A DNA stretch of 39,294 nucleotides from Lacunisphaera sp. (GTDB taxonomy: Bacteria > Verrucomicrobiota > Verrucomicrobiia > Opitutales > Opitutaceae). Position 1 is the first letter of the stretch. Every line of letters begins with the position of its first letter. This document shows, in pieces, positions 9,668 through 24,569 of the stretch. The stretch lies in the NCBI GenBank assembly GCA_029945855.1, contig JAQSDJ010000063.1, positions 1 to 39,294 of the forward strand, given 5' to 3'. The notes under the pieces were generated by a model. The model was not told the DNA's origin. It saw only the letters and a program-made list of their open reading frames with translations, and did not search any database. Made by a program: the position numbers and the translations under genes.

Positions 9668-10288
9668 ATGCTTACGGAAAAACAGGAGGCGATTTTGGAT
9701 TTTATCCGACAATACCAGCGGAGAGAGAAGGTCCCACCTTCAAGTCGAATCATTCAATCGCAGTTCAACCTCAAGGCTCAGTCCGGGGTGCGGCAGCACC
9801 TAGCCGCGTTGGCGACGAAAGGGCTCCTTGAACAGTATGCCGATGGTCGATGGGGGGTCAAAGGTCCGGTCCAGACCCATCTCTTCGAGGTCCCCATTCT
9901 CGGATCTATCCCAGCCGGGCTGCCCACCATCGAGGAGCAAGCGAGCGAAGAAATGTTATCAATCGATCCAGCTCTTTTCGGCATCGAGCGATCTAAGCCT
10001 AGCCATTTTTTTGCCCTTCGTGTTGCCGGCGACTCGATGATCGACGCACATATTCTGCCTGGCGACCTGATCCTATGTGAATGGCGCGAGCCGCGAGTGG
10101 GAGATATCATTGCCGCTTTGGTTGATGAAACAACCACCACCTTAAAACAGGTCGTCCGTGATCGTGGCCGGATAATTTTGAGAGCAGCCAATTCGTCTTA
10201 CCCTGACATTCACCCCGATCGCTTGGAGACACAAGGCGTAGTGCGCGGCTTAGTCCGCGCGCATTTATCTCGTTCGCTCAAATTTTAG
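9668..10288 (+). CDS. lexA: LexA-family transcriptional repressor with S24 self-cleavage domain
   Basis: A 206-residue protein with complete LexA layout. A winged helix occupies residues 1-65 (TEKQEAILDFI, then VRQHLAALATKGLLE). The cleavage dipeptide is A83-G84 (GSIPAGLP), the catalytic serine S123 (GDSMID) and the lysine K160 (TTLKQVV). It should repress its target genes and self-cleave when RecA filaments form. Length and motifs match true LexA rather than UmuD or a phage CI. It lies 56 bp upstream of the three-Cys-motif gene on the same strand, so the downstream operon is a plausible target. As cargo it is probably an accessory copy in addition to the host LexA (inference). Confidence 0.88.
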   Translation: MLTEKQEAILDFIRQYQRREKVPPSSRIIQSQFNLKAQSGVRQHLAALATKGLLEQYADGRWGVKGPVQTHLFEVPILGSIPAGLPTIEEQASEEMLSIDPALFGIERSKPSHFFALRVAGDSMIDAHILPGDLILCEWREPRVGDIIAALVDETTTTLKQVVRDRGRIILRAANSSYPDIHPDRLETQGVVRGLVRAHLSRSLKF

Positions 10289-10344: not shown

Positions 10345-11178
10345 ATGGGCAAACATTCACATATCGAATGGACTCACCATACATTCAATCCCTGGTGGGG
10401 TTGCGTGAAAGTCTCACCCGCCTGCCAGCACTGTTATGCGGAGGCGTGGGCCAAGCGCGTCGGCAGTAAGGTATGGGGACATAAAGCCCCGCGTCGGTTT
10501 TTCGGTGACGACCACTGGTCGGACCCGGTCAAGTGGAACGCCGAGGCACTGAAGACAGGTGAACGGGCCCGCGTTTTCTGCGCGTCTATGGCGGACGTTT
10601 TCGAGGCTCGCAAGGACTTGAACGAACATCGCGCGCGCTTGTGGGACTTGATCGAGGCAACACCGGCGCTCGACTGGCTCCTTCTCACCAAGCGTCCCGA
10701 GCATGTGAAGAAGCTTACCCGTTGGGGCGAGAACTGGCCGGCTAATGTCTGGCTTGGCACCACGGTCGAAAATCAGGAATGGGCCGACAAGCGCATGCCC
10801 CATCTGCTCGCCAACCCCGCGAAGGTTCGGTTCCTTTCCTGCGAGCCACTGCTCGGGACACTGGACCTGTCCGCCTATGTGCCGGCGGGCAAGCCTTCCC
10901 CAGTGCACTGGGTCATCGCCGGTGGGGAGAGTGGGCCACACTCGCGGCCGATGGACCCGGAGTGGGTTCGCAACCTCCGAGACTTCTGCCGGAAGCGGAA
11001 GGTCGCTTTTCACTTCAAACAATGGGGCCATTGGGCGCCGTCAGTGCCGGACGAAGCGCCCAAAGCGAAAACAGTAGAGGTCGGCAAGCACACCACGATG
11101 GTAGCGCTCGGGAAGGGCGCTGCCGGCCGTGTTTTGGACGGTAAAACCTACGACGAGCTGCCAACGGTGGCGGCATAG
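10345..11178 (+). CDS. Three-Cys-motif protein, DUF5131 (phage Gp37/Gp68 family)
   Basis: A 277-residue member of the family found in phages and bacteria, starting with the conserved MGKHSHIEWTHHTFNPWWGC stretch. The three cysteines C20, C27 and C30 (spacing Cx6CxxC) resemble an iron-sulfur-binding motif, and the family is often described as radical-SAM-like. The C-terminal half keeps WLLLTKRP, WLGTTVENQ and VIAGGESG. The ATG at 10345 is preferred over an upstream in-frame start because the family begins at this MGKH. It is followed by two TcmP genes; TcmP is named as the partner of three-Cys-motif proteins. The biochemical reaction is not established here; action on nucleic acid is possible. 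Confidence 0.85.
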   Translation: MGKHSHIEWTHHTFNPWWGCVKVSPACQHCYAEAWAKRVGSKVWGHKAPRRFFGDDHWSDPVKWNAEALKTGERARVFCASMADVFEARKDLNEHRARLWDLIEATPALDWLLLTKRPEHVKKLTRWGENWPANVWLGTTVENQEWADKRMPHLLANPAKVRFLSCEPLLGTLDLSAYVPAGKPSPVHWVIAGGESGPHSRPMDPEWVRNLRDFCRKRKVAFHFKQWGHWAPSVPDEAPKAKTVEVGKHTTMVALGKGAAGRVLDGKTYDELPTVAA

Positions 11179-11206
11179 TCGGCGTCAGCACACATGAACC
11201 ACCCCA

Positions 11207-12127
11207 ATGCCAGAAGAGCAATGCCACCTATTTGACCCCTCATCCATTCCGATAGGTGAAAAGAAACTCGAACTAAAGACGGCGGAAGCGCCAGTTTGGA
11301 CGGAAAACAAAGCGCAGCTCATTCAGCGTTACTTGCGTTACTTCGTGTTCATCACGAAGCACGGCACCTATCTCGACGCCTTTTCAGCGCCTCAAAGTCC
11401 TGATCACGCAGACGTATCCTGCGCGGCGAAGCTAGTCCTGGAGAGTGACCCGAAATGGTTCCGCAACTTTGCGCTCTTCGACTTAAGTAAACCCGGTATC
11501 GCGTTCCTACAAAATCTCGCGACCGCGAATACGGTAACCAAACGCACAATCCACGTGATTCAGGGGGATTCGAACGTCGAGCTTCCAGCGTTCCTGGCAA
11601 AAAACCCGATTCCGGAAAAAGAGGCCACGTTCTGTCTGCTCGACCAGCGAACGTTCGAGTGCGATTGGCAAACGGTCGTCGAAGTTGCCAAGCACAAGAA
11701 GACAGGAAACAAGATCGAAGTATTCTACTTTTTGGCGCAGGGATGGCTGGACCGTTCTATCGCGGCCTTGGGCAATCCGGAAGTTGATCTCCTAAAGTGG
11801 TGGGGAAATGATGACTGGAAGGTTTTGGCGAAAATGCCGGGCTCTGAGCGAGGTATCTATCTCGCCGAGCGCTTCAAGAAGGAGTTCGGTTATCGCTATG
11901 CTTACGCTTTCGCGATTTATCAACGGGACGGAATCGATGCGGGCAAGGTGATGTTTTGGATGATCCACGCATCGGATCATGAAGAGGCCCCAAAGCTGAT
12001 GATGCGGGCCTACCGCAACGTCGTTGCTCCATTGGAGCCGATCGAACAGTTGAAAATGGAGTTTGGCGCGGATGCAGCGTCGACCACGGCAAATGGATCT
12101 GTTGCCACAGCCAACCCGCAGCGGTGA
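11207..12127 (+). CDS. tcmP: Three-Cys-motif partner protein TcmP, degenerate copy
   Basis: A 306-residue protein of the TcmP family. The order of blocks matches the next gene: WTENKAQLIQRYLRYF, the Rossmann first strand YLDAFSAPQ, DLSKPGIAFL, and the second core block CLLDQRTFECDW. In the neighbouring copy these read YLELFSGPG and AFIDPTGIS, so the glycine-rich loop and the DP turn expected of an active SAM-binding fold are altered here. That suggests a structural or regulatory partner. The C-terminal part (WWGNDDWK, GYRYAYAFAIYQ, MFWMIHASDHEEA) follows the family pattern. It sits 28 bp after the DUF5131 gene and overlaps the next tcmP by 4 bp (GTGA). Confidence 0.75.
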   Translation: MPEEQCHLFDPSSIPIGEKKLELKTAEAPVWTENKAQLIQRYLRYFVFITKHGTYLDAFSAPQSPDHADVSCAAKLVLESDPKWFRNFALFDLSKPGIAFLQNLATANTVTKRTIHVIQGDSNVELPAFLAKNPIPEKEATFCLLDQRTFECDWQTVVEVAKHKKTGNKIEVFYFLAQGWLDRSIAALGNPEVDLLKWWGNDDWKVLAKMPGSERGIYLAERFKKEFGYRYAYAFAIYQRDGIDAGKVMFWMIHASDHEEAPKLMMRAYRNVVAPLEPIEQLKMEFGADAASTTANGSVATANPQR

Positions 12128-12987
12128 AGTTTATCCCTCTTCAATCTGCTGACGCCACGCCTTGGACAGACGCTGTCTCCTCGAAAGACGGGCTTCCGGT
12201 CAGAGAAAGTGGTAGTTGGATCTACGAGAAGCACAGGAACCTCGTCTACTTCTCTACAATTTTCGCCACGAGCATGAAGCCAACGGCATACAAGCCGGGA
12301 TGGCCGCATCGTATCTACCTTGAGCTGTTCTCGGGACCGGGAAAATGTTTGGTTCGGGAAACCGGGCAAGAGGAAGATGGATCACCGCTCAAAGTCATCG
12401 ATCATGAGTTCACGCGGTTTATTTTCATCGATATGAACACCGCTGCGGCGCGTGCGCTGGAGCAGCGTCTGGCTTCACATCCCAACGCGGATAAGGTTGA
12501 GATCTGGAACGGTGATTGTGCCGAGGCCATTCAGAGGCTGACCATAGAGCGTGGCGCACTGACCTTTGCTTTCATCGATCCTACCGGGATATCGCAGGTG
12601 CCGTTCCATTTGATTCAGACCTTGCGACGGAAAACGCGGTGCGACCTGTTGATAAATTTCCAGCACGCGATGGGTATAAAGAGGAACATGCACCAGTATA
12701 CTCCCGACTCTGACTCTGATTGTGCGCTCACCCAATTTCTCGGCAACGAGTCTTGGAAGGCACTACTTGGACGGGCGCCAAAAGAATTTTTTCTCGAATA
12801 CTTGGCGCTTTATCGCGCTAGGCTCGCGGAGACGGGGTTCGTCCACTCGAACAACCAGGTTATGATTAACATGAACAATCGGACGCCGCTGTATTTGCTT
12901 CTTTTTGCGTCTGGGCACCCGAGAGGACAGGAATTTTGGGACAAGGCGGTCAGTGGGTCGGATCCCCAGTTGGGCCTCGGAATCTGA
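12124..12987 (+). CDS. tcmP: Three-Cys-motif partner protein TcmP
   Basis: A 287-residue TcmP with methyltransferase-like core motifs: YLELFSGPG (glycine loop), FIFIDMN (acidic residue after strand two), IWNGDCAEAI and AFIDPTGIS. It ends with PLYLLLFASGHPRGQEFWDKA, which is where the family usually ends, so the protein looks complete. Translation starts at GTG 12124 inside the stop codon of the first tcmP (4-bp overlap), indicating coupling and probably a 1:1 partnership. The SAM-dependent methyltransferase fold is inferred from motifs; the substrate is unknown. It acts with the DUF5131 protein by family association. Confidence 0.82.
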   Translation: MKFIPLQSADATPWTDAVSSKDGLPVRESGSWIYEKHRNLVYFSTIFATSMKPTAYKPGWPHRIYLELFSGPGKCLVRETGQEEDGSPLKVIDHEFTRFIFIDMNTAAARALEQRLASHPNADKVEIWNGDCAEAIQRLTIERGALTFAFIDPTGISQVPFHLIQTLRRKTRCDLLINFQHAMGIKRNMHQYTPDSDSDCALTQFLGNESWKALLGRAPKEFFLEYLALYRARLAETGFVHSNNQVMINMNNRTPLYLLLFASGHPRGQEFWDKAVSGSDPQLGLGI

Positions 12988-13039
12988 CATCCTGTCTTGC
13001 GCTGTTTTTACAACCCCCTTGTCATCAGGAAACTGCTTA

Positions 13040-16000
13040 ATGTCTCCCCCGAATCCAAGCTCAGGAATACGCGACAACCACTCACGTGGCAGCGTAGGGG
13101 ACTTTCTTCGGAAGGAGCTTAAACCTGGGGCATCCTTGGACCTCGTTACGGCATATTTCACGATCTTCGCTTACGATAAATTACGAACTGAACTGAACCA
13201 GCTTGGACGCATCCGCCTGCTCTTCGGCGAGGCGGCGTTCATCAAAGCCATCGATCCTGACGAAAAAGACGGCGCAGCCTACGTGCTCAAGGATGACGGC
13301 CTCACGCTAGCCAATGGACTCAACCAACGGCACCTCGCTCAAGCCTGCGCTGACTGGATGCGCGACAAGGTCGACGTTCGTTCCGTCACCAAGACCGGAT
13401 TTCTTCACGGCAAAATGTCGCACATTACGCGCGGAGAAGTGACGGCCGCCATCGTGGGCAGCTCTAACTTTACCACCCGCGGCCTTGGCTTGGCCGCAGC
13501 CAATAACAACGTGGAATTGAACCTCGTCGTTGATGGCAATCGCGACCGGGATGACCTTCAGGCTTGGTTCGAGGAGCTTTGGAATGACCAGGCTCGCGTC
13601 GAGGATGTGAAGGAGCGCGTTCTCGACTATCTTCTTCAGGTTTACGCAGACCAGTCTCCTCAGTTCGTCTATTACAAGACCCTCTTCGAGCTATTTAAGC
13701 GATTCATCGAGGAAGGCCAATCGCTCGATGAAGTGCTCCGTCAGATCCGGCTGCCCGATACCGGCATCTGGAAAGCACTCTATTCCTTCCAGCGCGACGG
13801 CGCTAAGTCGGCCATCAACAAGATCAAGCAATATAATGGATGCATCCTCGCTGACAGCGTCGGCCTCGGCAAAACCTATACTGCACTTGCGGTCATCAAA
13901 TATTTCGAGCTGCGCAACGACAAGGTGCTTGTCCTATGCCCGAAGAAACTTCGTCGCAATTGGACGATCTACACCCAGCCCAGTGCGCTGAACCCCTTCC
14001 AGGGAGATCGGTTCGGTTTTCATGTGCTGCACCACACCGACCTCTCGCGCACCACTGGCGATTCGAACGGGCTCGATCTCCGAACGCTGAACTGGGGCGC
14101 CTACGACCTCGTGGTCATCGACGAGTCGCACAACTTTCGAAACAACAAGCTCGCGACACAGCGCCCAGGTGACCAAGAGGAGCGCCGCAGCCGCTACCAA
14201 CGTCTGATGGAAGACATCATTGCTGCCGGCGCCCGCACCAAGGTTCTGCTGCTCTCGGCCACCCCGGTGAACAACCAGCTCGCCGACCTGCGCAACCAGA
14301 TTTCATTCATTGCTGGAGGCGATGTGGCGCGCAATGGTGAGGCCGACAGCGCCTTCGCCGAAAAGCTAGGCGTTCCCTCGGTCAAGGAGACCACCCGCAT
14401 GGCCCAGGCCCATTTTACCACCTGGTCGAAGCGTCCACCCACTCAGCGCAAGACCCGCGAGCTGATCGCCGCGATTGGTGGCGATTTCTTCAAACTGCTC
14501 GACGGTCTGAGTCTGGCCCGTTCCCGTCGGCAGATCGCGGGATATTACGCCGATGAAATGAAAAAATTGGGCGGTTTCCCGAAACGCCCCGCTCCCAAGG
14601 CCATTCATCCGGCCATTGACCTGAAGCGCACCTTCTTGTCGTTCGAGCAACTTGATGACGAGATCAACCGCCTCCGCCTGGCACTTTATCACCCCACGAG
14701 CTTCCTTCGGGATAAAGGGGACCTGCCGGACGAAATTCGCGCAGCCTATCAGGACAAGATCCTTGGCGGGTTCACCCAGGAGGGCCGGGAGAAAATCCTG
14801 ATCTCGATGATGAAGGTGAATTTCCTCAAGCGCCTGGAGAGTTCCGTCGATTCCTTCCGGCTCACACTTGAACGCACCATCGCCAAGATCGATGAACTTG
14901 AGAAGCGCATCACTGGTTTCGAAAAACATCAGAACGAGAATCCGGATCTCGACTACGATTCACTCACACCCGAGGACTTTGAGGATTCTGATTTGGAGGG
15001 TGAGGACTTCACCATCGGCGGCCGTCGTCGCATCCACCTCGGGCATCTAAAGCTTCCTGAGTGGCTCAAGGCCGTGCGAACGGATCGCACCCAGCTCCAG
15101 TTTCTGTTGGAGAAAACTCAGACAGTGGTGCCTTCCCGCGACGGCAAACTCGCCGAACTCAAGGAAATCATCACCGCGAAGGCGCAGGGCCCGACAATCA
15201 ACCGTGATGGCAAGGCCAACCACAAGGTCCTCGTTTTTACCGCCTTCGCCGATACCGCCCGCTACCTCCATGAGAACCTCGCCGCGTGGGCCAGGAAGGA
15301 GCTGAAGATCCACACCGGTCTCGTCTGCGGTGACGGCGGCAATGCCGCGTCGCTCGGGCGGACCGACTTCGACGACATCCTCACCAATTTCTCGCCTATC
15401 GCCAAGCGCCGCGCGGACCAATCCGCAGCGTTCCCGAACCAACGCGAGGAAATCGACCTGCTCATAGCCACCGACTGTATCTCGGAAGGCCAAAACCTGC
15501 AGGACTGCGATCTGCTGGTGAATTACGATATCCACTGGAATCCCGTCCGTATCATCCAGCGCTTTGGTCGCATCGATCGCATCGGTTCGCGCAATGATTC
15601 CGTGCAGCTCGTCAACTTCTGGCCCGTTGCCGACCTCGATCGCTACCTCGGCGTTAAGCACCGGGTCGAGGCACGCATGGCCCTCGTGGACCTCGCCGCC
15701 ACCCAGACCGACAACCTGCTCGATACCACTCAGCTCGAAGACCTCATCAAGGAGGACATGCTCTTCCGTGACCGCCAGCTAAAGCGCCTCAAGGATGAGG
15801 TGCTTGACCTGGAGGATCTGGACGACGCTGTCTCGCTCACTGACTTCTCTCTCGATGAGTTCCGGCAGGACCTGCTCAACTTTCTTCAGGCGCACAAGCA
15901 CGAGCTGGAGCGGGCCCCGCTTGGCCTCTACGCAGTTGTCCCGCCCGTCGACGATATTCCTATGGCGCAGCCGGGCGTCATCTACTGCCTGCGACAGAAA

Positions 16001-16399
16001 GCCGGCGCGACCACCCCTATCAATGAGCGCATCAATCCTCTCGCGCCACACTACCTCGTTTATGTTCACGCCAGTGGCGAAGTGCGCTTGGCCTTTGTGC
16101 AGGCCAAGACCGTGCTGAACCTCTTTCGCTCACTTGCTCTCGGCAAGACCGAGCCCTACGTGGAACTCTGCCGCCTGTTTGATCGCCAGACTGAGCAGGG
16201 GAGTGACATGCGTGTTTACACCAAGCTCGTCTCCAAGGCCGTCGATTCGATTACCTCCTCCTACCAGCAGCGGGTTGCCGATAATCTCAGGGGCAGTCGC
16301 TCCTTTGTTTTACCAACCGCGGACGAGCAACCCCAGGCCAGTGAATCCTCCTTCGAACTTGTCACTTGGTTGGTCCTGCTGGCCGAAAACCAATCCTGA
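13040..16399 (+). CDS. PLD-domain SNF2-family helicase (defence-type)
   Basis: A 1,119-residue protein. Residues about 20-190 are a phospholipase-D-like domain with H123 and K125 (GFLHGKMS) followed by VGSSNFTTRGL. A superfamily 2 Swi2/Snf2 helicase follows: Walker A DSVGLGKT (272-279), DESH box (361-364), LLSATPVNNQ, and motif VI QRFGRIDRIG (840-849). The ATG at 13040 is chosen over in-frame starts inside tcmP because an AGGA lies about 10 bases upstream and the protein-like sequence begins there. It sits 3 bp before the methylase gene. Such PLD-helicases accompany DNA methylases in restriction-like systems, where they translocate on or process DNA. The pairing recalls DISARM, but drmA and drmB are absent. 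Confidence 0.88.
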   Translation: MSPPNPSSGIRDNHSRGSVGDFLRKELKPGASLDLVTAYFTIFAYDKLRTELNQLGRIRLLFGEAAFIKAIDPDEKDGAAYVLKDDGLTLANGLNQRHLAQACADWMRDKVDVRSVTKTGFLHGKMSHITRGEVTAAIVGSSNFTTRGLGLAAANNNVELNLVVDGNRDRDDLQAWFEELWNDQARVEDVKERVLDYLLQVYADQSPQFVYYKTLFELFKRFIEEGQSLDEVLRQIRLPDTGIWKALYSFQRDGAKSAINKIKQYNGCILADSVGLGKTYTALAVIKYFELRNDKVLVLCPKKLRRNWTIYTQPSALNPFQGDRFGFHVLHHTDLSRTTGDSNGLDLRTLNWGAYDLVVIDESHNFRNNKLATQRPGDQEERRSRYQRLMEDIIAAGARTKVLLLSATPVNNQLADLRNQISFIAGGDVARNGEADSAFAEKLGVPSVKETTRMAQAHFTTWSKRPPTQRKTRELIAAIGGDFFKLLDGLSLARSRRQIAGYYADEMKKLGGFPKRPAPKAIHPAIDLKRTFLSFEQLDDEINRLRLALYHPTSFLRDKGDLPDEIRAAYQDKILGGFTQEGREKILISMMKVNFLKRLESSVDSFRLTLERTIAKIDELEKRITGFEKHQNENPDLDYDSLTPEDFEDSDLEGEDFTIGGRRRIHLGHLKLPEWLKAVRTDRTQLQFLLEKTQTVVPSRDGKLAELKEIITAKAQGPTINRDGKANHKVLVFTAFADTARYLHENLAAWARKELKIHTGLVCGDGGNAASLGRTDFDDILTNFSPIAKRRADQSAAFPNQREEIDLLIATDCISEGQNLQDCDLLVNYDIHWNPVRIIQRFGRIDRIGSRNDSVQLVNFWPVADLDRYLGVKHRVEARMALVDLAATQTDNLLDTTQLEDLIKEDMLFRDRQLKRLKDEVLDLEDLDDAVSLTDFSLDEFRQDLLNFLQAHKHELERAPLGLYAVVPPVDDIPMAQPGVIYCLRQKAGATTPINERINPLAPHYLVYVHASGEVRLAFVQAKTVLNLFRSLALGKTEPYVELCRLFDRQTEQGSDMRVYTKLVSKAVDSITSSYQQRVADNLRGSRSFVLPTADEQPQASESSFELVTWLVLLAENQS

Positions 16400-16402
16400 T
16401 AC

Positions 16403-19400
16403 ATGGCTTCCAATCCCGAGCTTCTGAGGCAAATCGAGACCAGACTTACTGCATTCGGCACCTCGCCGCTACTTGACGCCTCGCTTAGTCTATTCGCCAC
16501 TCTTGGATATAAGAGTGAACGGCGGATGAAGCTCCGATCTTCAACCGCTGAAGGTTTCCTTGGCACCTTCGATCGCGCCCAGTTGCTCAATCGCGACCGC
16601 GCCCTCCTTGCCGATTGGCAGTCCGTCGAATTTCTTTTCCAGCTCACTGACGCTGAGGTCCAATCCGCCGCCTCTGGCACCGACGAGCTGGCCTTTGACA
16701 GCAAGGGGAAGTTCGACGGTGCCGAGATCAACAGCTTCCTCTTCCTCGCCATCGAACTGCGTCCCGCTGCCACCCGTGAGGGCGAGCGGAAAGGCCAGCC
16801 CTACACTCGCACCGAGCTGGCCGGCGTCACCCGCGCCCTCAACCGCCTCTTCGATATGCCGGCGCTGCTTGTCTTCAAGCATGGCGACACCGTCTCTCTC
16901 GGCATCATTCACCGCCGCCTCTCCAAGCGCGACACGTCGAAGGATGTCCTCGAAAAGGTCACCCTCATCAAGGACATCGCCTTCGCCGACCCAATCCGCG
17001 CCCACGTTGAAATTTTGCACGACTTCGCGCTGCCGCAGCTCGTCGCCGACTACGCCGTCGCCAACTTTGTCGCCCTCCACGCTGCTTGGCAGAAGCGCCT
17101 TGGCTCCTACGCGCTCTCCAACGATTTTTATCGTGAGATCGCCGACTGGTATTTCTGGGCGCACCACCAGGTGGCCGACGGCGCCATTCGCCTACCCCGG
17201 CACTGCGACACCGAGCAGGAGAAATCCCTCTTCCTCATCCGCCTGCTCACCCGAGTCATCTTCAGTTGGTTTCTCGTCGAGAAACGCCTCATTCCCGCCG
17301 AGCTATTCCGCGAGAATCGCCTCACGAAGCTCATCAAGGACTTCACTCACTCCCGGGACCCGAAGAAACCCGACACCTCGCCCGCCTACTACCGTGCCGT
17401 CCTGCAGAATCTCTTCTTTGGCACCCTCAACATGCCGGCCGACCAACGCGGTTTCCGGGAGAAGGCGCGGAAGTCCGGTGAATACGACAAAAACTACGGC
17501 GTCACCAACCTCTGGCGCTACGAAACCGCCTTTCGCGATCCCGTCGCCTGGCTCAAGCTCGCTGGCCGAGTTCCCTTTCTTAACGGTGGCCTCTTCGACT
17601 GCCTCGACGACAAGTCCGGAAAAAAGAAGGACAATTCCATCCTAGATGGTTTCTCCGACCGTGAGGACTTCGGCTGCCACTTGCCCAACGACCTCTTCTT
17701 TGGCCCCGAGCGTAACGTGGACCTCTCCCGGGACTACGGCGAAGAGGACAAGCGCACCGCCCGCTCCAAGAAGGCCAAAGTCCGCGGCCTCATTGAAATT
17801 CTCTCCCGCTACAAGTTTACCATCGAAGAGAACACCCCACTAGAGGAGGAAATCGCGCTCGATCCTGAGCTGCTCGGCAAGGTATTCGAGAACCTCCTCG
17901 CCTCCTACAACGAGGACACCCGCACCACCGCCCGCAAGGCCCTCGGCGCCTTCTACACCCCGCGCGAAATCGTCAGCTACATGGTAGACGAGGCCCTCAA
18001 GTCCTACCTCTCCACCCAGGTGCCGCGCTGCAAGGCCGCCCTCGACGACCTCTTTTCCAACAAGGCCACGCTCCGAGACATCAAGCCCGACACTCGCGAC
18101 GCCCTCATCGCCGCCATCGGCCGGGTGAAGATTCTCGACCCCGCCTGTGGCTCCGGCGCCTTTCCGATGGGCGCACTCCACCGCCTCGTCGATCTCCTTC
18201 AGAAGCTGGACTCCAACAATGAATCATGGAAACGCGACCGGCTAGCCGAGGCTCGCCGCTACCGATCGATTCTCGAATCGTCCAATAACGCAAAAGAGGA
18301 ACTCGCCGCTTGCGACGCTCGCATTGCTGACATCGAGAAATCCTTTGATACCCGCTACCACGCCCTTGATTTCGCAAGGAAGCTCTACCTCATCGAAAAC
18401 TCCATATACGGCGTCGACATCCAGCCTATTGCCACCCAGATCGCGAAGCTCCGCTTTTTCATCTCGCTGGTTGTTGATCAAAAAGTGGAGCCCGCAGCAC
18501 CCAACCTCGGCGTCCGTCCGCTGCCTAACCTTGAGACCCGCCTCGTAGCCGCCGACACCCTCGTCCCCATCGAAAAGGCGGACGATCACCAATTCGACCT
18601 GCTGGATCAAGAGATTCGCCCACTTCGTCGCGAGCTAGAGAATGTTCGCCACGCGCACTTCAATGCACGAAGTCCTCAAGCAAAACGTAAATGCCGCGAG
18701 CAGGATGCTGAGCTTCGGGAGAAAATCGCAGACCTCCTCAAACAGAGCGGCATGCCTGCCAAGAGTGCCGCCAAGCTCGCTGATTGTGATCTCTACGATC
18801 AAAACAAAAGCCAGCCATTCTTCGACTGCGAGTGGATGTTCGGTCTACCCGTCGGCAAAGTCCGCCTGCAGGGCCCTGCCTCCGCGACCCTCTTGGGGAA
18901 CCTTTCCCTCATCAACGACGCCGGCGGGCAGACCGAACTTACCCCAAGCGCTGCTAGGGAGATCGACAGCGGCTTCGATGTAGTTATCGGCAACCCGCCT
19001 TACATTCGTATCCAGACGCTCAAGCAGAAAGATCCCAAAATCGTCGGCTTCTACCAGGACAACTATGCAAGCGCCGCAAAGGGCAACTACGACATTTACG
19101 TCGTCTTCATCGAAGCCGGTCTGCGGCTTCTAAAATCCGACGGTCACCTCGCATATATCTGCCCGCATAAGTTCTTCAATGCCCAGTATGGTGAGCCGAT
19201 TCGCGAGTTCATAGCCAATGGCAAACACCTTCGGCACGTAGTCCACTTCGGCGAGCAACAGGTATTCCCGGGCGCAAGCATCTACACATGCCTTCTGTTC
19301 CTAGCCAACGCCGGGGCAGCAGACTGCCGGTTTGTTCGTGCTGCCGATCTTGAGGCATGGAAGGCAACGCTCGCCGGAACCGACGGGAGATTCGCCGCTA

Positions 19401-20518
19401 CCACAATCGGAAAAGACGAATGGAATTTCACGGTCGGGAAAGGCAGGGCTGTATTTGAGCGCCTGCAAGCGCACTCTCGAACCTTGGAGTCAGTAACGTT
19501 ACGAATCTTCCAAGGCATCAAGACCAGCGCTGACAAAATCTACATTGTGGAAGAGCGGCACCGGACGAAATCAAAGGTCTGCATCTATTCTCCCGAGACC
19601 GAGCGCGAGCACGAAGTCGAACCAGACCTCTTCCATCCCCTCATCAAGGGCGGCGATAGTCGCGCCTACATCCTCACCAAGACGGACCGGCTCATTCTTT
19701 TTCCGTATGCAGCCGATGAGAATGGCGAAACATCGCTCATTCCAGCCGTGACACTGAAGAAGAATTATCCGCTCACGTGGGCCTATCTCACCGCCAATCG
19801 AAAGTATCTCGAAGCGCGTGAAGATGGCGCGTTCATTGGTCCGAACTGGTATGTCTACGGACGCAGCCAGGCTTTGGACGTGATGTCTCAACCCAAGCTT
19901 TTCACGCCAGACCTCGCGCTTAACGCTTCATTCGCCTTCGACGACACCGGCGAGTTGTTCTTCACCGGAGGCGTGGCTGGCGGCTACGGCATTTTGCCGA
20001 AAGAGGGGATCAACCCGAAATGGCTGCTCAGCTTGCTCAACAGCCGTGTCGTGGATTTCTTCCACCACCAGATCGCCACGCAGATGCGAGGTGGCTGGTA
20101 TAGCTACGAATCGAGGTTCATCAGCAATCTACCGATCGCGGAGGCCTCGGAATCCGAAGTGCCGAGGATGGTGGCGGTCGTCGAAACATTGCGATTCGTC
20201 AGTCGCTACCTCGCCGACCACCCCGAGACGGCCAGCGCGCGGGACCCGTTGATGGTGGCATATTGCGAGCAGATCCTGAACGGGCTGGTGTATGAACTGT
20301 ATTTCCGGGAAGAGCTGCATGCCGCCGGCCTACGTCTCTTCGACCTCGTCACCCAGGCCAATCTGCCGGACATCACCAAAGTCCCTGAAAAGGATCGCCT
20401 GTCCACACTCCGGAAGAAATTCGAGGAACTCTACGACATCGAGCACCCGCTCAGAAAGGCACTGTTTTCGCTCGGTGACCTGGAAGTCGTTCGAATCATT
20501 GAGGGTAAGACCGCGTGA
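16403..20518 (+). CDS. Large Eco57I-type N6-adenine DNA methyltransferase
   Basis: A 1,371-residue class I SAM-dependent DNA methylase. Motif I DPACGSGAF lies at residues 579-587 and the catalytic NPPY at 864-867. Residues 1-570 form a long N-terminal region with conserved blocks (FLAIELRPA, RTELAGVTRALNRLF, WYFWAHHQV, IRLLTRVIFSWFLVEKRL, PFLNGGLFDCLDD). After the methylase core comes a TaqI/Eco57I-like target-recognition region (LFTPDLALNASFAFDD, ILPKEGINPKWLLSLLNS). I see no clear PD-(D/E)XK nuclease motif in it, so cleavage may come from another gene of the operon. Size recalls type IIG enzymes and BREX PglX; no pglZ is nearby. Coupled to the helicase (3 bp) and to the ATPase (GTGA overlap). 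Confidence 0.88.
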   Translation: MASNPELLRQIETRLTAFGTSPLLDASLSLFATLGYKSERRMKLRSSTAEGFLGTFDRAQLLNRDRALLADWQSVEFLFQLTDAEVQSAASGTDELAFDSKGKFDGAEINSFLFLAIELRPAATREGERKGQPYTRTELAGVTRALNRLFDMPALLVFKHGDTVSLGIIHRRLSKRDTSKDVLEKVTLIKDIAFADPIRAHVEILHDFALPQLVADYAVANFVALHAAWQKRLGSYALSNDFYREIADWYFWAHHQVADGAIRLPRHCDTEQEKSLFLIRLLTRVIFSWFLVEKRLIPAELFRENRLTKLIKDFTHSRDPKKPDTSPAYYRAVLQNLFFGTLNMPADQRGFREKARKSGEYDKNYGVTNLWRYETAFRDPVAWLKLAGRVPFLNGGLFDCLDDKSGKKKDNSILDGFSDREDFGCHLPNDLFFGPERNVDLSRDYGEEDKRTARSKKAKVRGLIEILSRYKFTIEENTPLEEEIALDPELLGKVFENLLASYNEDTRTTARKALGAFYTPREIVSYMVDEALKSYLSTQVPRCKAALDDLFSNKATLRDIKPDTRDALIAAIGRVKILDPACGSGAFPMGALHRLVDLLQKLDSNNESWKRDRLAEARRYRSILESSNNAKEELAACDARIADIEKSFDTRYHALDFARKLYLIENSIYGVDIQPIATQIAKLRFFISLVVDQKVEPAAPNLGVRPLPNLETRLVAADTLVPIEKADDHQFDLLDQEIRPLRRELENVRHAHFNARSPQAKRKCREQDAELREKIADLLKQSGMPAKSAAKLADCDLYDQNKSQPFFDCEWMFGLPVGKVRLQGPASATLLGNLSLINDAGGQTELTPSAAREIDSGFDVVIGNPPYIRIQTLKQKDPKIVGFYQDNYASAAKGNYDIYVVFIEAGLRLLKSDGHLAYICPHKFFNAQYGEPIREFIANGKHLRHVVHFGEQQVFPGASIYTCLLFLANAGAADCRFVRAADLEAWKATLAGTDGRFAATTIGKDEWNFTVGKGRAVFERLQAHSRTLESVTLRIFQGIKTSADKIYIVEERHRTKSKVCIYSPETEREHEVEPDLFHPLIKGGDSRAYILTKTDRLILFPYAADENGETSLIPAVTLKKNYPLTWAYLTANRKYLEAREDGAFIGPNWYVYGRSQALDVMSQPKLFTPDLALNASFAFDDTGELFFTGGVAGGYGILPKEGINPKWLLSLLNSRVVDFFHHQIATQMRGGWYSYESRFISNLPIAEASESEVPRMVAVVETLRFVSRYLADHPETASARDPLMVAYCEQILNGLVYELYFREELHAAGLRLFDLVTQANLPDITKVPEKDRLSTLRKKFEELYDIEHPLRKALFSLGDLEVVRIIEGKTA

Positions 20519-22002
20519 AGATTACCCGACTAGAAATTGATGATTTTCGCGCCTTCCCCGGGCCCGACCCTTACCTCTTTGATTTCGCCGGCAAGAATGT
20601 TCTCATCTATGGTGAGAACGGCAGCGGAAAGACCTCCGTCTTCCATGCCATGCGCGAACTTTTCAACCTGTCGGCATCGCCACGCCCCTTCCATCAGTTC
20701 AAGCACCGAGCCACGCCGCAAACCGATGGCTATGTAGCGGTCACTTTCAGCGATGGAAACAGGCATGTTTGGTCATATGGGGCTGAGCGTCCGACTGCTG
20801 TTGACGTGATCGCTCAGACTGCACGGCGGAAAGGTTGCTTGGACTACCGCGGTTTACTCCAAACGAACTTCCTTCACGGTCGGAATCGCGTTAATGTTTT
20901 TGACTTGGTGGTCGGCGAACTTTGGCGAGACCTATCTATGCCTTACAGTGGCGGCACCAGAACCGTCGGGGAGCTTTGGAGCATGGTGGGCCGGGCATTC
21001 CCCAAGAAGGTCGAGAAGCGCGCTGTAGATGGAATTATACGCACGCGGTGGCAACCAGCGACTCACAGGCGAAAGCGCAACGTCGCCGGGCGCCTCGCCG
21101 ATTTCAACACTTCGCTTCGTGCGCAAATACCCGTTTTACAAGCCGAGACCCAGCGTTTGCTCGATACTTACTTTCGTTTCGACCTCTCGGTTCACTTGGA
21201 ATTTCCGGGGGTCGGCCCTGCCCAGAACAGCCGCGCTCCACATTCGACGGAATTGTGGCTCGATGCCGGATTTCGTGGCGCTCGGCTGCAGGAGTTTCAA
21301 AATGAGCTCAACGAGGCCAGGCTCACGGCGCTGGCCCTTGCGTTATATGCAGCGGGCTTACGGCTCAGTATACCGCCAGATCCGACCAAACCTCGATTGC
21401 TGGTGCTCGACGACGTGCTCATTGGACTCGACCTGAGCAATCGTATGCCACTGCTGGAGATGCTTAGTGCCGAGTTCGGCGACTGGCAGGTTGTGCTTTT
21501 GACTCACGATCCAGTGTGGTTTGAGATGGCGAAGGAGTATACCGAGAACACGGGTGAGTGGACCCACCTCCGATTGTTCGACGTTCCCCATCCCAGTCTA
21601 GGTAGCGTTCCGCGTTTAGAATCTGACAAACTGGATTTGGAGCGTGCACGGCAACACCTAGGGACAGGTGACCTTAAGGCCTCGGCGACTTATGCGCGGT
21701 CGGCCTTGGAGAAACGACTCCGCAAGGTGTGCGCAGACAAAGCGGTTCGGGTCCGTTTCCGCAACAATCCCAAAGAGGTAAAGGCCAACGAACTTTGGCA
21801 GGGAATCCTCGGCAGGAATAAAGCTTTCATCGCTGAAGGGAAACCGCCCTTTATTGAGGCCAATTTGGTCAACCGTATTGAAGCCGTGCGATCAGTGGTG
21901 CTGAACGAACTGACCCATTCCCGGATAACGACGCTTACGACCGGAGACCTGAACGCGGCAATTCACGCCGTGGACGAGTTTGAGAAATTTCAATTCACCT
22001 AG
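20515..22002 (+). CDS. SMC/RecF-like AAA ATPase with helical C-terminal domain
   Basis: A 495-residue ABC-type ATPase. Residues 1-40 show MKITRLEIDDFRAF and Walker A GENGSGKT (33-40). The ABC signature-like segment LNEARLTALALALYAAG is at about 263-280, Walker B LLVLDDV at 295-301, and LLTHDPVWF is the H-loop region. Only a short insert separates the two halves, so there is no long coiled coil. The C-terminal 110 residues (GDLKASATYARSALEKRLRKVC, then VLNELTHSRI) resemble helical HEPN/DUF4145-like domains found on defence ATPases; this domain call is tentative. GTG 20515 overlaps the methylase stop. A sensor or switch function is inferred from context. Confidence 0.8.
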   Translation: MKITRLEIDDFRAFPGPDPYLFDFAGKNVLIYGENGSGKTSVFHAMRELFNLSASPRPFHQFKHRATPQTDGYVAVTFSDGNRHVWSYGAERPTAVDVIAQTARRKGCLDYRGLLQTNFLHGRNRVNVFDLVVGELWRDLSMPYSGGTRTVGELWSMVGRAFPKKVEKRAVDGIIRTRWQPATHRRKRNVAGRLADFNTSLRAQIPVLQAETQRLLDTYFRFDLSVHLEFPGVGPAQNSRAPHSTELWLDAGFRGARLQEFQNELNEARLTALALALYAAGLRLSIPPDPTKPRLLVLDDVLIGLDLSNRMPLLEMLSAEFGDWQVVLLTHDPVWFEMAKEYTENTGEWTHLRLFDVPHPSLGSVPRLESDKLDLERARQHLGTGDLKASATYARSALEKRLRKVCADKAVRVRFRNNPKEVKANELWQGILGRNKAFIAEGKPPFIEANLVNRIEAVRSVVLNELTHSRITTLTTGDLNAAIHAVDEFEKFQFT

Positions 22003-22013
22003 CGGATTATCGC

Positions 22014-23978
22014 ATGCTCTCTGTCCTCCAACCAAAGTCGAAGCAGTTGGTTTATGACCTCGTCACGCAAGCCGGCGTGGACACAAGCGACTGGGCCAAT
22101 GTCAAAGGCGGGCACGCTGCGGCCAACCCCAAGTATTGCTACGACTGGGCATTCTGGGATGATGCCAAAAAGGTTGTCGTGTTCTGTCTCTGGTATTCGC
22201 AGATGGATGAGCACGAGGGGCGTGTTTTTGAGGTCCTCAACTATCGCGATGTGGCACGCAAAGCAGACAGTGTGCGCGTAGCGAGAGCCCGGCGTATGGA
22301 CCAAGGGCTTTACATGGCCTTCAGACGCAAGCTGCCAGTCCGGGTGATCGTTGTCGATGGGGCGCGACGCGGTGAGGCTGACGCAGACTTTTCTAAGGTC
22401 GAATTCCGGATGCTCGATCCGGTGCCGTGGTCGGTCGTCAGTTACGATGCAGACACCGGGGCCTGCCGCGTGGAGCGAGAGCAGTCGGCAGTGACGGTCC
22501 GCAGCTTTTTGCTCACTTGGGGTAACTTTGAGGAGACTCCGGACTCCGAGATCGAAGATATTGCCAGGAAGCTCAAACGGGCAAAGACGGTCGAGGGTCA
22601 GTGGAGTAGTGGGAACCGAAAGGATATCAATGTCGGCGAACGCGTCTACTTGCTGAGGCAAGGGCCCGATGCGCCGGGCTTGGTCGGCTGGGGCACGGTC
22701 AGCGAAGAGCCATTCGAAGACGATCACTGGGACCCTGCCCGACGCCGGTCGGGTGTGAAGGCGAACTACATCATGGTCCACTGGCGGGAGATGGTTCCCA
22801 AGGACGCCGGCATTCCGCGAGCACGGTTGGTGGAGCTGGGAGTTGCTGACTCGTTGCTAAATGCACAAGGTAGTGGGGTCATCATCGCGGAAGAAATCTC
22901 GCGCCAACTCGAAGCGGTCTGGAGCGAGAATTACCGGCTACTCAACAAGGCACTGCCAGTTCCTGAGTTCGATTCATTGGAATCTCGTTCTGAACGCAAG
23001 CTGGCTCGCATCGCCTACAATTCCGCCGGCTGGCAGCGGCCAACGGGGGATGCGGGAGAGCTGGAATCAGGCGAGACCTACAACGCCAAGAACAAGTTCG
23101 GGCACGAAGATTGGCTGTTTCGAGCCGAGTGGGTGATCGATGGGTGGCGCTACGCCTTCATCCAAGGCCTGAACAAGCATCGCCTCGCCTATTTTGGTCA
23201 ATCGCTCGATGTGACACTCTACACCTTGCAACCAGACAAACGTCGCCGGTTGGTGGCTACCATCAACGGGCTGGAGAGCCTGGACAACGATCAAGCCAAG
23301 GATGCCTTGGCCGTATTCAAGGAGCGTGGCTGGCTCAGAACGATGCAGAAAGAGGTTAAAGACATTGGTGGGAATGCCGACGCCTTGGGTGATCCGAAGT
23401 GGGCGGAGCATGTCCTGAATGTCCGTTTCCGGATCGACAACGTAGACACCTACCCTCCGGACACTTTCCTGCCAGACGACGACTGGATCCATGACCGGCA
23501 CCGTTACATGCTCTACAAACTGGAGGATGCGGACCGTCAAAGGATAGAACAGAGCCGCCTCGGTCGATCAGGTTCGCAGGAGCCCCCTGAAGTTCGTCGT
23601 CTGTTCCGGCGCGGGACCAATCCGATCGAATACACTCCTGAGCATGGCAAAATGCAGGCCAAACTGATGGCTGAGCTCCAGCAAGAATACGGCAAGGAGT
23701 GCGTCTGCCGGGAGGAAGATTTCGTCGATGTCCGCGTCGAAACCGAAAAAGAACTCATCTACTTCGAGATCAAGACGGACCTCGATCCTCGTGCCGTCAT
23801 CCGTCAAGCTCTCGGACAAATCTTGGAATATGCCTATCATCCAGCCCGTGCAGGCCGCCGGCCTGATAGTCTCGTTATCGTTGGCCGCTTGATTCTCGGT
23901 GAGCAAGACAAGGCCTACCTTGCGAGCCTCAGAGAGAGATTTTCACTCCCGATCAGCTATCGTGTCGTGACGGTTTGA
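22014..23978 (+). CDS. Putative EVE-like domain plus PD-(D/E)XK nuclease
   Basis: A 654-residue protein with three parts. The N-terminus (SKQLVYDLVTQAGVDTSDWAN) resembles the start of McrA-like or modification-dependent nucleases. Residues about 165-300 carry an EVE/PUA-like pattern (WSSGNRKDINVGERVYLLRQG, GLVGWGTV, DDHWD) of the kind that reads modified bases. The C-terminal about 110 residues look like a PD-(D/E)XK nuclease: E554 in AELQQEYG, D572 in FVDVRVE, and E585/K587 in YFEIK, then IRQALGQILEY. It starts 11 bp after the ATPase gene. Inferred role: modification-sensing endonuclease, possibly the cutting component that the methylase lacks. The nuclease motif is convincing; the EVE call is moderate. 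Confidence 0.75.
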   Translation: MLSVLQPKSKQLVYDLVTQAGVDTSDWANVKGGHAAANPKYCYDWAFWDDAKKVVVFCLWYSQMDEHEGRVFEVLNYRDVARKADSVRVARARRMDQGLYMAFRRKLPVRVIVVDGARRGEADADFSKVEFRMLDPVPWSVVSYDADTGACRVEREQSAVTVRSFLLTWGNFEETPDSEIEDIARKLKRAKTVEGQWSSGNRKDINVGERVYLLRQGPDAPGLVGWGTVSEEPFEDDHWDPARRRSGVKANYIMVHWREMVPKDAGIPRARLVELGVADSLLNAQGSGVIIAEEISRQLEAVWSENYRLLNKALPVPEFDSLESRSERKLARIAYNSAGWQRPTGDAGELESGETYNAKNKFGHEDWLFRAEWVIDGWRYAFIQGLNKHRLAYFGQSLDVTLYTLQPDKRRRLVATINGLESLDNDQAKDALAVFKERGWLRTMQKEVKDIGGNADALGDPKWAEHVLNVRFRIDNVDTYPPDTFLPDDDWIHDRHRYMLYKLEDADRQRIEQSRLGRSGSQEPPEVRRLFRRGTNPIEYTPEHGKMQAKLMAELQQEYGKECVCREEDFVDVRVETEKELIYFEIKTDLDPRAVIRQALGQILEYAYHPARAGRRPDSLVIVGRLILGEQDKAYLASLRERFSLPISYRVVTV

Positions 23979-23997
23979 AAACAGGAGAGAATTTGTG

Positions 23998-24432
23998 ATG
24001 AAACCCGCCACCATAGAAGAGGTAGCTACTTTGGCACAGACGACTTATGATAGTATTTGGGAGGACTGGTATGCCCAAATGCCAAATGCAACCAAGGCCA
24101 TGGTGAGCACCTACATCGGGGTGGACAGTGCTGGTTATAGCCACCCAAGAAATCTACTTCAGAACCCAATTGGTGATGGGAACCTGGAGGATTTCGATAT
24201 TCGGAATGTCGAGGGCTGGCCTATCTGGAAAGTGCAGCTTGTTCATGAGATGTTGCATGAGTGGCAGTTCAAGAAGCCCTGTGTCGCGACCGCCCCCGCT
24301 GTCGCTCTTCACGCACAATGCTTAAGAAGGAATTTTACTGGCGGAGGGCACGGCCCTGAATTTTTCCAAGCGATCTTGGAGAAAGCTCCTTATTTCGGGA
24401 TGACTCCTCTGGAGCTCTTTAATCGGATCTGA
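23998..24432 (+). CDS. SprT-like zinc metallopeptidase-type protein
   Basis: A 144-residue protein with the zincin motif HEMLHEW (H83, H87) and a third histidine in GGGHGPEFFQ (H118), as in SprT/Spartan-type proteases. The zinc ribbon found in longer SprT proteins is absent. An AGGAG at 23983-23987 serves either GTG 23995 (7-nt spacing) or ATG 23998 (10-nt spacing); ATG is preferred. Last gene of the run, 19 bp after the nuclease gene and followed by a terminator hairpin. SprT-like proteases can remove DNA-crosslinked proteins, so it could clear a trapped enzyme or target a phage protein; this is inference. Confidence 0.8.
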   Translation: MKPATIEEVATLAQTTYDSIWEDWYAQMPNATKAMVSTYIGVDSAGYSHPRNLLQNPIGDGNLEDFDIRNVEGWPIWKVQLVHEMLHEWQFKKPCVATAPAVALHAQCLRRNFTGGGHGPEFFQAILEKAPYFGMTPLELFNRI

Positions 24433-24445: not shown

Positions 24446-24484
24446 AAGACCGCAGGAATTTCCCTGCGGTCTTCGACTTTTCTT
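24446..24484 (+). terminator. Rho-independent-type terminator after the cargo operon
   Basis: A perfect 11-bp stem (AAGACCGCAGG at 24446-24456, CCTGCGGTCTT at 24463-24473) with a 6-nt loop is followed within a few bases by TTTTCTTT. It lies 14 bp after the SprT-like stop codon and directly before the transposon-end repeats. It would end the eight-gene operon and may keep transcription out of the transposon end and the convergent rng gene. Confidence 0.8.
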
Positions 24485-24564
24485 TAATGTCAGGTGACGA
24501 CTGAACCTTAATGTCCTGAAACTCTACATTAATGTCTGCGACTCTGCATTAATGTCATCATCCA
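24474..24564. repeat. Transposon end with four TnsB-type binding repeats (Tn7R-like)
   Basis: Four related 18-bp units end in TTAATGTC: 24474-24491, 24498-24515, 24519-24536 and 24539-24556. Consensus is close to CGACTCTGCATTAATGTC. The last two differ at only 3 of 18 positions. Start-to-start distances are 24, 21 and 20 bp. Read inward from the right, the end is TGGATGAT followed by GACATTAATG. Known Tn7 and ShCAST ends also have 8 bases starting with TG before a GACA-type TnsB site, which places the terminus at 24564. Dense packing of four sites in 90 bp resembles Tn7R rather than Tn7L. The exact end and the five-base duplication are inferred. Confidence 0.8.
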
Positions 24565-24569
24565 ATCGT
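24565..24569. other. Predicted target-site duplication / attachment point
   Basis: ATCGT directly follows the predicted transposon terminus and overlaps the last base of the rng stop codon. Tn7-family elements duplicate 5 bp. The matching copy would lie at the left end, outside the window, so this cannot be confirmed here. Confidence 0.4.

What the first reader, a model, noticed from the sequence alone, without database searches (positions are those of the whole stretch)
10345..24432. Eight-gene operon that may be an undescribed composite defence system
DUF5131, two TcmP, PLD-SNF2 helicase, Eco57I-type methylase, ATPase, EVE/PD-(D/E)XK nuclease and SprT-like protease are all on one strand with gaps of at most 52 bp, several overlaps, and a terminator at the end. 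Parts recall DISARM, BREX and type IV restriction, but drmA/drmB, pglZ, brxC and mcrBC are not seen.
Basis: partly seen in the sequence, partly recalled or inferred. Interest (0 to 1): 0.85.

Follow-up and report, generated by a model that had tools for sequence, protein, structure and literature searches.

The report
Jumping gene carrying phage-defence modules
The eight genes are cargo of a Tn7-like jumping element and combine a widespread, apparently unnamed cut-or-methylate defence system with unrelated add-on genes, so they are a modular collection rather than one new eight-gene machine.

Summary
The gene layout is real: eight + strand genes at 10345-24432, gaps -4 to 52 bp, hairpin at the end. 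The "one eight-gene system" reading fails. The operon is cargo of a Tn7-like transposon: tnsA-like, tnsB, tnsC and two tniQ/tnsD genes lie at 108-8097, and a TnsB-site-like repeat array begins exactly 12 nt past the stop of a neighbouring RNase E/G gene. Two same-genus genomes show the array at the same distance; one carries Gabija there.

Only PLD-Snf2 nuclease-translocase (HEL), Eco57I-type methylase (MT) and RecF-like ATPase (ATP) recur together: HEL accompanies MT in 87 of 102 loci of many phyla, ATP in 33. DUF5131, TcmP and the HExxH gene were found in 0 of 107 loci; DUF5131-TcmP-TcmP is a separate module. MT shows recognition-domain replacement (17-25% identity at residues 961-1260 against 77-98% at 61-720), as in restriction-modification. 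Its N-terminus is homologous to stand-alone DUF4391 proteins beside HEL relatives in type III-like plasmid operons; DUF4391 may dock HEL. No named system I tested matches HEL-MT-ATP, but one key paper was not available.

The parts
108..2132 (-). TniQ/TnsD-type target selector 2 (674 aa)
   Evidence: Pfam TniQ 6e-14, TnsD 5e-11
2002..3549 (-). TniQ/TnsD-type target selector 1 (515 aa)
   Evidence: Pfam TnsD 8e-38, TniQ 7e-10
3556..5094 (-). TnsC-type AAA ATPase
   Evidence: Pfam TniB 4e-12, AAA_22 4e-16
5009..7282 (-). TnsB DDE transposase
   Evidence: phmmer to Tn7 TnsB structure 7pik, 1e-29; no Pfam hit at 0.01; putative D/D/E read by eye in segments starting at 338, 425, 460
7279..8097 (-). 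TnsA-like endonuclease
   Evidence: Pfam Tn7_TnsA-like_N 1.5e-4, below the curated cut-off; position beside tnsB
9641..9662 (.). 22-bp inverted repeat, candidate operator of the LexA-like repressor
   Evidence: 27 of 2000 mononucleotide shuffles of the 110-bp stretch hold one as good; found by eye first, the derived pattern occurs once in the window
9668..10288 (+). LexA/S24 repressor, probable first gene of the operon
   Evidence: Pfam LexA_DNA_bind 1e-13, Peptidase_S24 1e-20; Ala-Gly at 83, Ser 123, Lys 160
10345..11178 (+). DUF5131 (three-Cys, radical-SAM-like)
   Evidence: Pfam 2e-85; PADLOC PDC-M41B; weak match to radical SAM pair protein 1e-8, far below its cut-off; Cys 32/39/42 in the numbering of the ORF from 10309
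11207..12127 (+). TcmP 1
   Evidence: TIGR04474 3e-32
12124..12987 (+). TcmP 2
   Evidence: TIGR04474 4e-39
13040..16399 (+). HEL: PLD nuclease + Snf2 translocase
   Evidence: Pfam PLDc_2, SNF2, Helicase_C; HxK and GSSN invariant in 61 of 61; ORF opens at 12905, homology from about residue 46
16403..20518 (+). MT: DUF4391-like domain + Eco57I-type N6-methylase + TaqI_C recognition domain
   Evidence: Pfam Eco57I 7e-40, TaqI_C 2e-7; DUF4391 homology; recognition-domain replacement
20515..22002 (+). ATP: RecF/SMC-head ABC ATPase with a helical C-terminal domain
   Evidence: Pfam SMC_N; model pLDDT 85.7; RecF 2o5v Z 21.1, rmsd 4.5, 320 aligned
22014..23978 (+). NUC: chimeric nuclease-like protein
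   Evidence: no profile match; pieces 1-183, 162-386 and 328-654 match different proteins, several annotated HNH endonuclease
23995..24432 (+). HExxH protein (SprT-like by motif only)
   Evidence: no profile match
24446..24473 (.). bidirectional terminator-like hairpin
24484..24556 (-). right end: four GACATTAA repeats, spacing 20-24 bp, TnsB-site-like
24569..26317 (-). RNase E/G gene whose 3' end marks the attachment site
   Evidence: Pfam RNase_E_G 1e-101; repeat array starts 12 nt after its stop

Best explanation
A Tn7-like transposon (tnsA-like, tnsB, tnsC, two tniQ/tnsD), inserted just after the 3' end of an RNase E/G gene, carries one probable LexA-controlled cargo operon made of modules: LexA-like repressor; DUF5131-TcmP-TcmP; HEL-MT-ATP; a nuclease-like protein and an HExxH protein. 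HEL-MT-ATP most likely works as an ATP-dependent restriction-modification system. MT recognises a short DNA sequence through its C-terminal recognition domain and N6-methylates host sites; HEL, docked through MT's N-terminal DUF4391-like domain, translocates on unmethylated invading DNA and cuts it with its PLD domain; ATP, a RecF-like DNA clamp, senses ends or stalled complexes and licenses or amplifies the attack. DNA damage during infection would cleave the LexA-like repressor and raise expression. Shown here: gene content, transposon context, recurrence of HEL-MT and MT-ATP, replacement of the recognition domain, DUF4391 homology, invariant catalytic motifs. Inferred: every biochemical activity, docking, damage induction, phage resistance.
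For: Tn7 genes. Island GC 0.559 against 0.676 beyond it. Array 12 nt past the RNase E/G stop in the window, L145 and L151 (3 of 12 loci examined; one of the 12 has only 3 bp and one 184 bp downstream); L145's genome carries GajA 3e-149 and GajB 6e-61 there. HEL on the MT strand in 87 of 102 MT loci; of the 15 misses 12 have MT within about 2 kb of the stored start; 45 gaps below 100 bp, 39 of 309-5071 bp, 3 with HEL downstream. ATP in 33 of 102, 25 of them starting -19 to +1 from the MT end. MT against L034: identity 0.77-0.98 per 60 residues at 61-720, 0.17-0.25 at 961-1260, 0.65 at 1261-1320, HEL 0.80. MT-ATP distances r 0.479, 0 of 2000 permutations. DUF4391: profile-profile E 2e-6, probability 89; a profile of stand-alone DUF4391 hits 68 of 111 MT ORFs and 0 of 1221 other ORFs. 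Similarity of the MT N-terminus tracks HEL type in 69 pairs (rho 0.691), that of the catalytic core does not (0.116).
Against: No experiment. HEL-ATP distances are uncorrelated (r -0.001) and HEL-MT only weakly correlated (0.237; 31 of 2000). Within the 52 near HEL pairs, N-terminal coupling is not stronger than that of MT 240-460 (0.344 against 0.358; core 0.250), so docking rests on a between-class contrast that may reflect few events. The loci were chosen for MT similarity. The left transposon end is not in the contig, so no target-site duplication could be tested; TnsA is below its Pfam cut-off. Co-transcription from LexA rests on spacing; predicted promoters are no more than shuffles give (7 against 5.6). 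The classical HKD Asp is not conserved in HEL. Three well-covered MT loci (L071, L078, L082) lack HEL.
Confidence: 0.7

Rival explanations
1. All eight (or nine) genes form one integrated composite system whose parts act together, e.g. DUF5131/TcmP modify nucleic acid or a cofactor used by the restriction genes.
For: Tight spacing, one strand, hairpin at the end. DUF5131-TcmP-TcmP also lies next to genes annotated DNA methyltransferase, DEAD/DEAH helicase and GIY-YIG nuclease on an Acidovorax plasmid. L034 carries a homologue of the NUC N-terminus in its HEL-MT-ATP neighbourhood.
Against: 0 of 107 loci with DUF5131, TcmP (also with profiles of 5 and 10 sequences) or the HExxH gene, 1 of 107 with NUC. 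No HEL or MT relative in the four DUF5131-TcmP plasmid loci read.
Confidence: 0.1
2. HEL and MT are independent genes that merely co-occur in islands; MT alone is a type IIG-like enzyme or solitary methylase.
For: PADLOC scores MT highest as type IIG (1e-93); HEL relatives also sit with type III-like Mod and Res genes; HEL and MT distances correlate weakly.
Against: HEL accompanies 87 of 102 MT loci, 45 with gaps below 100 bp; the MT N-terminus is DUF4391-like, the same domain as the separate gene beside the type III-linked HELs.
Confidence: 0.15
3. The cargo serves the transposon (stability, exclusion of rivals) rather than phage resistance of the host.
For: Cargo lies inside a Tn7-like element; the same attachment site holds a related end with a different cargo.
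Against: HEL-MT(-ATP) sets were found in loci where no homologue of these tns genes was seen (0 of 107); the two roles are not exclusive.
Confidence: 0.15

Closest known systems
Tn7-like transposons with defence cargo (PMC8649781; passages read)
   Same: Tns core genes, arrays of TnsB sites, insertion beside a conserved locus; R-M (their table includes COG1002) and Gabija as frequent cargo; tandem tniQ/tnsD genes are common (1,048 loci in PMC10293859, passages)
   Different: The words ribonuclease/RNase do not occur in the main text of PMC10293859, and in PMC8649781 only in other senses (supplements not seen); DUF5131, TcmP, SprT and Eco57I do not occur in the main text of PMC8649781
Type ISP R-M enzymes LlaGI/LlaBIII (PMC3874165, passages read)
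   Same: Nuclease + translocase + gamma-type N6 methylase + C-terminal recognition domain
   Different: Here two polypeptides; PLD nuclease instead of Mrr-like; extra RecF-like ATPase and DUF4391 domain
DISARM class 1 DrmD-DrmMI, and ARMADA (PMC12458937, passages read)
   Same: Snf2 helicase plus large PglX/DrmMI-like methylase: HEL to DrmD 6e-34, MT to PglX 3e-26 and DrmMI 1e-18
   Different: No drmA/drmB/drmC or YprA helicase among the scanned proteins; PLD domain fused to HEL
Hma / BREX-related DUF499 systems (PMC8565338, PMC12839542, PMC7641849; passages read)
   Same: Helicase-nuclease + methylase + ATPase; type-2 BR helicases carry an N-terminal HKD nuclease; an archaeal set adds EVE
   Different: ATPase here is RecF/SMC-type, not DUF499; methylase is Eco57I-type
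PbeABCD / CxC ABC-ATPase systems (PMC10853773, passages read)
   Same: HKD-helicase plus ABC ATPase, some with a methylase
   Different: No DndE-like gene found and no CxC in the 495-aa ATPase
PADLOC candidate PDC-M41 (DUF5131 + TcmP)
   Same: DUF5131 and both TcmP match it
   Different: It covers only the first module; two TcmP genes here

Membership tests
Tn7-like transposon | DDE transposase TnsB | tested here: met
   Tn7 TnsB structure 7pik, 1e-29 over residues 303-679
Tn7-like transposon | TnsC ATPase and TniQ/TnsD target selector | tested here: met
Tn7-like transposon | TnsA endonuclease | tested here: inconclusive
   Pfam 22.7 bits, cut-off 26.5; right position
Tn7-like transposon | Arrays of TnsB sites at both ends and target-site duplication | tested here: inconclusive
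   Right array present; contig starts at window base 1, no left array found
Restriction-modification (ATP-dependent, type I/ISP-like logic) | Methylase with exchangeable recognition domain | tested here: met
   TaqI_C domain; recognition-domain replacement
Restriction-modification (ATP-dependent, type I/ISP-like logic) | Sequence-specific cleavage and protection by methylation | not testable with these tools
   needs enzymology
Type ISP R-M | Single polypeptide with Mrr-like nuclease | tested here: not met
   Two proteins; nuclease domain is PLD
Type IIG R-M | Nuclease fused to methylase | tested here: inconclusive
   MT matches IIG profiles but its N-terminus is DUF4391-like, activity unknown
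DISARM | drmA, drmB, drmC | tested here: not met
   No such protein among 19 window proteins scanned with Pfam and 10 with PADLOC; DrmA profile matched only the helicase part of HEL, DrmC profile only its PLD part weakly (0.013)
BREX | PglZ and BrxC | tested here: not met
   (same proteins)
Hma / DUF499 BREX-related | DUF499 ATPase | tested here: not met
   ATP matches SMC_N, no DUF499 hit; RecF/SMC fold
PbeABCD / CxC ABC ATPase | CxC hook ATPase with DndE | tested here: not met
   No CxC in the ATP sequence (printed); no DndE profile among hits shown for the operon proteins (PADLOC lists capped at 25 for three proteins)
PADLOC PDC-M41 candidate | DUF5131 plus TcmP neighbours | tested here: met
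   M41B 1e-59; M41A 6e-8 and 7e-20
EVE-containing type IV nuclease (NUC) | EVE domain | tested here: inconclusive
   No Pfam hit for the fragment at E up to 10; model of NUC unusable, pLDDT 35.5
SprT-like protease | SprT family match | tested here: inconclusive
   HExxH only; no profile match

The most novel reading that the evidence does not exclude
HEL-MT-ATP is an unnamed, phylum-spanning class of ATP-dependent restriction-modification in which a DUF4391 domain is a plug that docks one PLD-Snf2 effector onto different methylases: fused to Eco57I-type methylases here, a separate subunit with type III-like Mod elsewhere. In this element the set is put under DNA-damage control by a LexA-like repressor inside a Tn7-like transposon.
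Probability: 0.35. Interest if true: 0.68.

Novelty: new variant of a known kind. Interest (0 to 1): 0.45.

Why it matters
It replaces one speculative eight-gene machine with testable units. The DUF4391 link gives a functional hypothesis for a domain of unknown function and would connect two seemingly different restriction architectures. The shared attachment site after an RNase E/G gene is a place to look for further defence cargo in this genus.

Tried and rejected
Rejected: Hma, because the ATPase is not DUF499; DISARM, BREX, PbeABCD; the whole operon as a conserved unit.

Led nowhere: NUC relatives in viral contigs (none); the 145-aa gene in 273 genomes of the order (only the own genome); TnsB in 273 genomes (only the own genome), so the transposon could not be compared whole; plasmid relatives of TnsB reach only about 25-28% identity in the rows shown; structure of NUC from a single sequence; a HEPN assignment for the ATP C-terminus (R395, N464, H468 invariant in 26 of 26; the window fragment has no Pfam match and one relative only a weak DUF4145 match at 0.096; that DUF4145 belongs to the HEPN group is recalled), left open; the pdb_via table covers mainly residues 1-374 of ATP, so its C-terminus is untested. 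A MADS link for ATP (mad3, 1.3e-15) was not pursued beyond noting that the match is to ATPase segments.

Literature: ten searches; of the papers only listings and passages were seen. DUF5131: 0 papers. DUF4391 with helicase and methyltransferase: 0 papers. Searches joining SNF2, Eco57I, PLD, TaqI or RecF showed, in listings and the passages I opened, no paper describing HEL-MT-ATP. Krishnan et al. 2020 on ABC-ATPase conflict systems, the likeliest place for a prior description, was not held, so priority cannot be excluded.
Full report
OBSERVATION. The eight + strand genes at 10345-24432 exist as described, with distances 28, -4, 52, 3, -4, 11, 16 bp and a strong hairpin at 24446-24473. Family profiles support DUF5131, PLD+SNF2, Eco57I+TaqI_C and SMC_N and TcmP twice. 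The labels EVE/PD-(D/E)XK and SprT have no profile support; only motifs remain.

WHERE IT SITS. The first 24.56 kb have GC 0.559, the rest of the window 0.676. On the minus strand at 108-8097 lie five transposition genes: TnsA-like (below its Pfam cut-off), TnsB (Tn7 TnsB structure, 1e-29), TnsC and two TniQ/TnsD proteins. After the hairpin come four GACATTAA repeats spaced 20, 21 and 24 bp (minus strand); the pattern of two such repeats 6-20 bp apart occurs in the 5.0-Mb genome only here (3 overlapping matches; backward control 0). The first repeat begins exactly 12 nt after the stop codon of an RNase E/G gene. This gene was found in 18 of 21 genomes of the genus, own included, at E up to 1e-100. 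Of the 12 loci returned (one with 3 bp and one with 184 bp downstream), three show the array, all at 12 nt: the window, L145 and L151. L145 (genome G013) has a Gabija pair behind the array (GajA 3e-149, GajB 6e-61) and no relative of the window's tns genes in the next 60 kb (tblastn 1e-3); no second array was seen in the first 40 kb of it. So this is a Tn7-like element at a reused attachment site. The left end could not be tested, because the contig starts at window base 1.

A MISSED FIRST GENE. A LexA/S24 protein (9668-10288; Pfam 1e-13 and 1e-20) ends 56 bp before DUF5131 on the same strand. It keeps an Ala-Gly pair at 83 and Ser 123 and Lys 160, as expected of autocleaving repressors (positions; their role recalled). 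A 22-bp inverted repeat lies at 9641-9662; 27 of 2000 mononucleotide shuffles of that 110-bp stretch hold one as good. Control of the operon by this repressor is an inference.

WHICH GENES BELONG TOGETHER. Neighbourhoods were taken for 13 of the 16 other matching genomes (the single partial hits in G013, G015 and G341 were not fetched). Over 107 loci (L034-L140; five are flanking stretches without MT; lengths 3.0-24.1 kb, 39 under 15 kb), phmmer at 1e-5 found HEL in 87, MT in 102, ATP in 32, NUC in 1, LexA in 1 (opposite strand), and DUF5131, TcmP1, TcmP2, the HExxH gene and all tns genes in 0. Profiles of 5 DUF5131 and 10 TcmP sequences also found 0 among 9546 ORFs at 0.01. With family HMMs HEL lies on the MT strand in 87 of 102; 12 of the 15 misses have MT within about 2 kb of the stored start, and L071, L078 and L082 are real misses. 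Of the 87, 45 have gaps below 100 bp, 39 gaps of 309-5071 bp and 3 have HEL downstream. ATP lies on the MT strand in 33 of 102, 25 of them starting -19 to +1 from the MT end, 22 of these by the 4-bp overlap also seen in the window. Clustering of neighbours shows ATP as the commonest partner (29 loci), then two families in 10 loci each: one contains the L036 protein with DUF4062, HATPase_c_4 and Fic-like_C, the other the L042 protein with DUF1016/YhcG. HEL relatives at about 40% identity were read on six plasmids: next to DUF4391 in 5 of 6 by annotation (the sixth, Vibrio, has a gene of the same cluster annotated otherwise); a methylase gene follows in 6 of 6 (annotated type III EcoP15I-like in one, and in its cluster in four others); a helicase gene of the Res cluster in 4 of 6.

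THE DUF5131 MODULE. Acidovorax plasmid p1-T1 has DUF5131-TcmP-TcmP in the same order. All four DUF5131 plasmid loci read have TcmP next to or one gene from it, and no HEL or MT relative. These four are among the five best of 373 records.

MECHANISM EVIDENCE. MT has the methylase motifs DPACGSGAF and NPPY, invariant in 9 aligned sequences. Against L034, MT is 77-98% identical per 60 residues at 61-720, 17-25% at 961-1260 and 65% at 1261-1320, while HEL is 80% identical; L054 and L057 show the same dip, L055 a weaker one without the recovery. This is the signature of recognition-domain replacement. In HEL, HxK and GSSN are invariant in 61 of 61, as are the Walker GLGKT and DESH; the HKD Asp position is not. 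ATP models well (pLDDT 85.7, 26 sequences) and resembles RecF (Z 21.1, rmsd 4.5, 320 aligned) and SMC/Rad50 heads. Its C-terminal helical domain carries invariant R395, N464 and H468.

THE DUF4391 LINK. A Pfam hint (0.0089, below cut-off) was tested: MT 65-242 against stand-alone DUF4391 proteins of five of the six plasmid operons gives hhalign probability 89, E 2e-6. A profile of those five hits 68 of 111 MT ORFs and 0 of 1221 other ORFs of 200 aa or more (E 0.05 at Z 10000; at 0.001 44 and 0). In 69 of 87 HEL-MT pairs (both ORFs at least 900 aa, MT not cut at its start), similarity of MT 1-240 to the window copy follows similarity of HEL (rho 0.691; partial 0.688 given the core; 0 of 2000 permutations), while the catalytic core does not (0.116). 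The three HEL classes (7, 10, 52 pairs) have non-overlapping N-terminal scores (up to 0, 19-35, 63-427) and equal core scores (medians 274, 266, 268). Against: within the 52 near pairs plus the window N-terminal coupling (0.344) equals that of MT 240-460 (0.358), core 0.250; whole-protein HEL-MT correlation in 27 triples plus the window is weak (0.237), HEL-ATP nil, MT-ATP 0.479. Docking is therefore a hypothesis.

COMPARISON AND VERDICT. PADLOC profiles recognise pieces only: HKD+Snf2 C3a139 1.5e-119, type IIG 1e-93, mad3 1e-15, PDC-M41. Hma is a DUF499 system and does not fit. In function the set resembles type ISP enzymes split in two, with a PLD nuclease and an added RecF-like ATPase. R-M genes including COG1002, and Gabija, are known Tn7-like cargo. 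Hence a new variant of a known kind; the eight-gene novelty claim is not supported.

Noticed in passing
L145 / L156 (genome G013) and L151 / L158 (genome G005), downstream of the RNase E/G gene: The RNase E/G 3' end is a reused attachment site: identical 12-nt spacing to a GACATTAA array; G013 carries Gabija and a PDC-S10-like protein there but no relative of the window's tns genes was seen.
   Followed up: partly
L146 (genome G015), within about 160 bp past the RNase E/G gene: A second copy of the last 30-odd bases of the RNase E/G gene lies downstream, like a footprint of an earlier insertion.
   Followed up: no
L148 (genome G009): A different repeat array (GGGTAGAAATCA type) follows the RNase E/G gene, perhaps another element using the same site.
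   Followed up: no
L036:9329-14212: The MT of genome G027 is split in two ORFs; a foreign stretch and several short in-frame repeats (GADIPVC/QTGMSA type) lie inside it; described only.
   Followed up: no
L036, L038, L042, L049 between HEL and MT: The HEL-MT gap holds other defence-like genes: DUF4062/Fic-like_C (L036), AAA (L038), DUF1016 nuclease (L042), a protein clustering with DUF3800 (L049); 32 loci have at least one such gene.
   Followed up: partly
L180:9780-10619: A 279-aa protein with a weak HNH match shares 38% identity with NUC 162-323; neighbours look like type I R-M by eye.
   Followed up: no
window 8473-9045 +: 190-aa ORF between tnsA and lexA with no Pfam, PADLOC or PHROGs match.
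   Followed up: no
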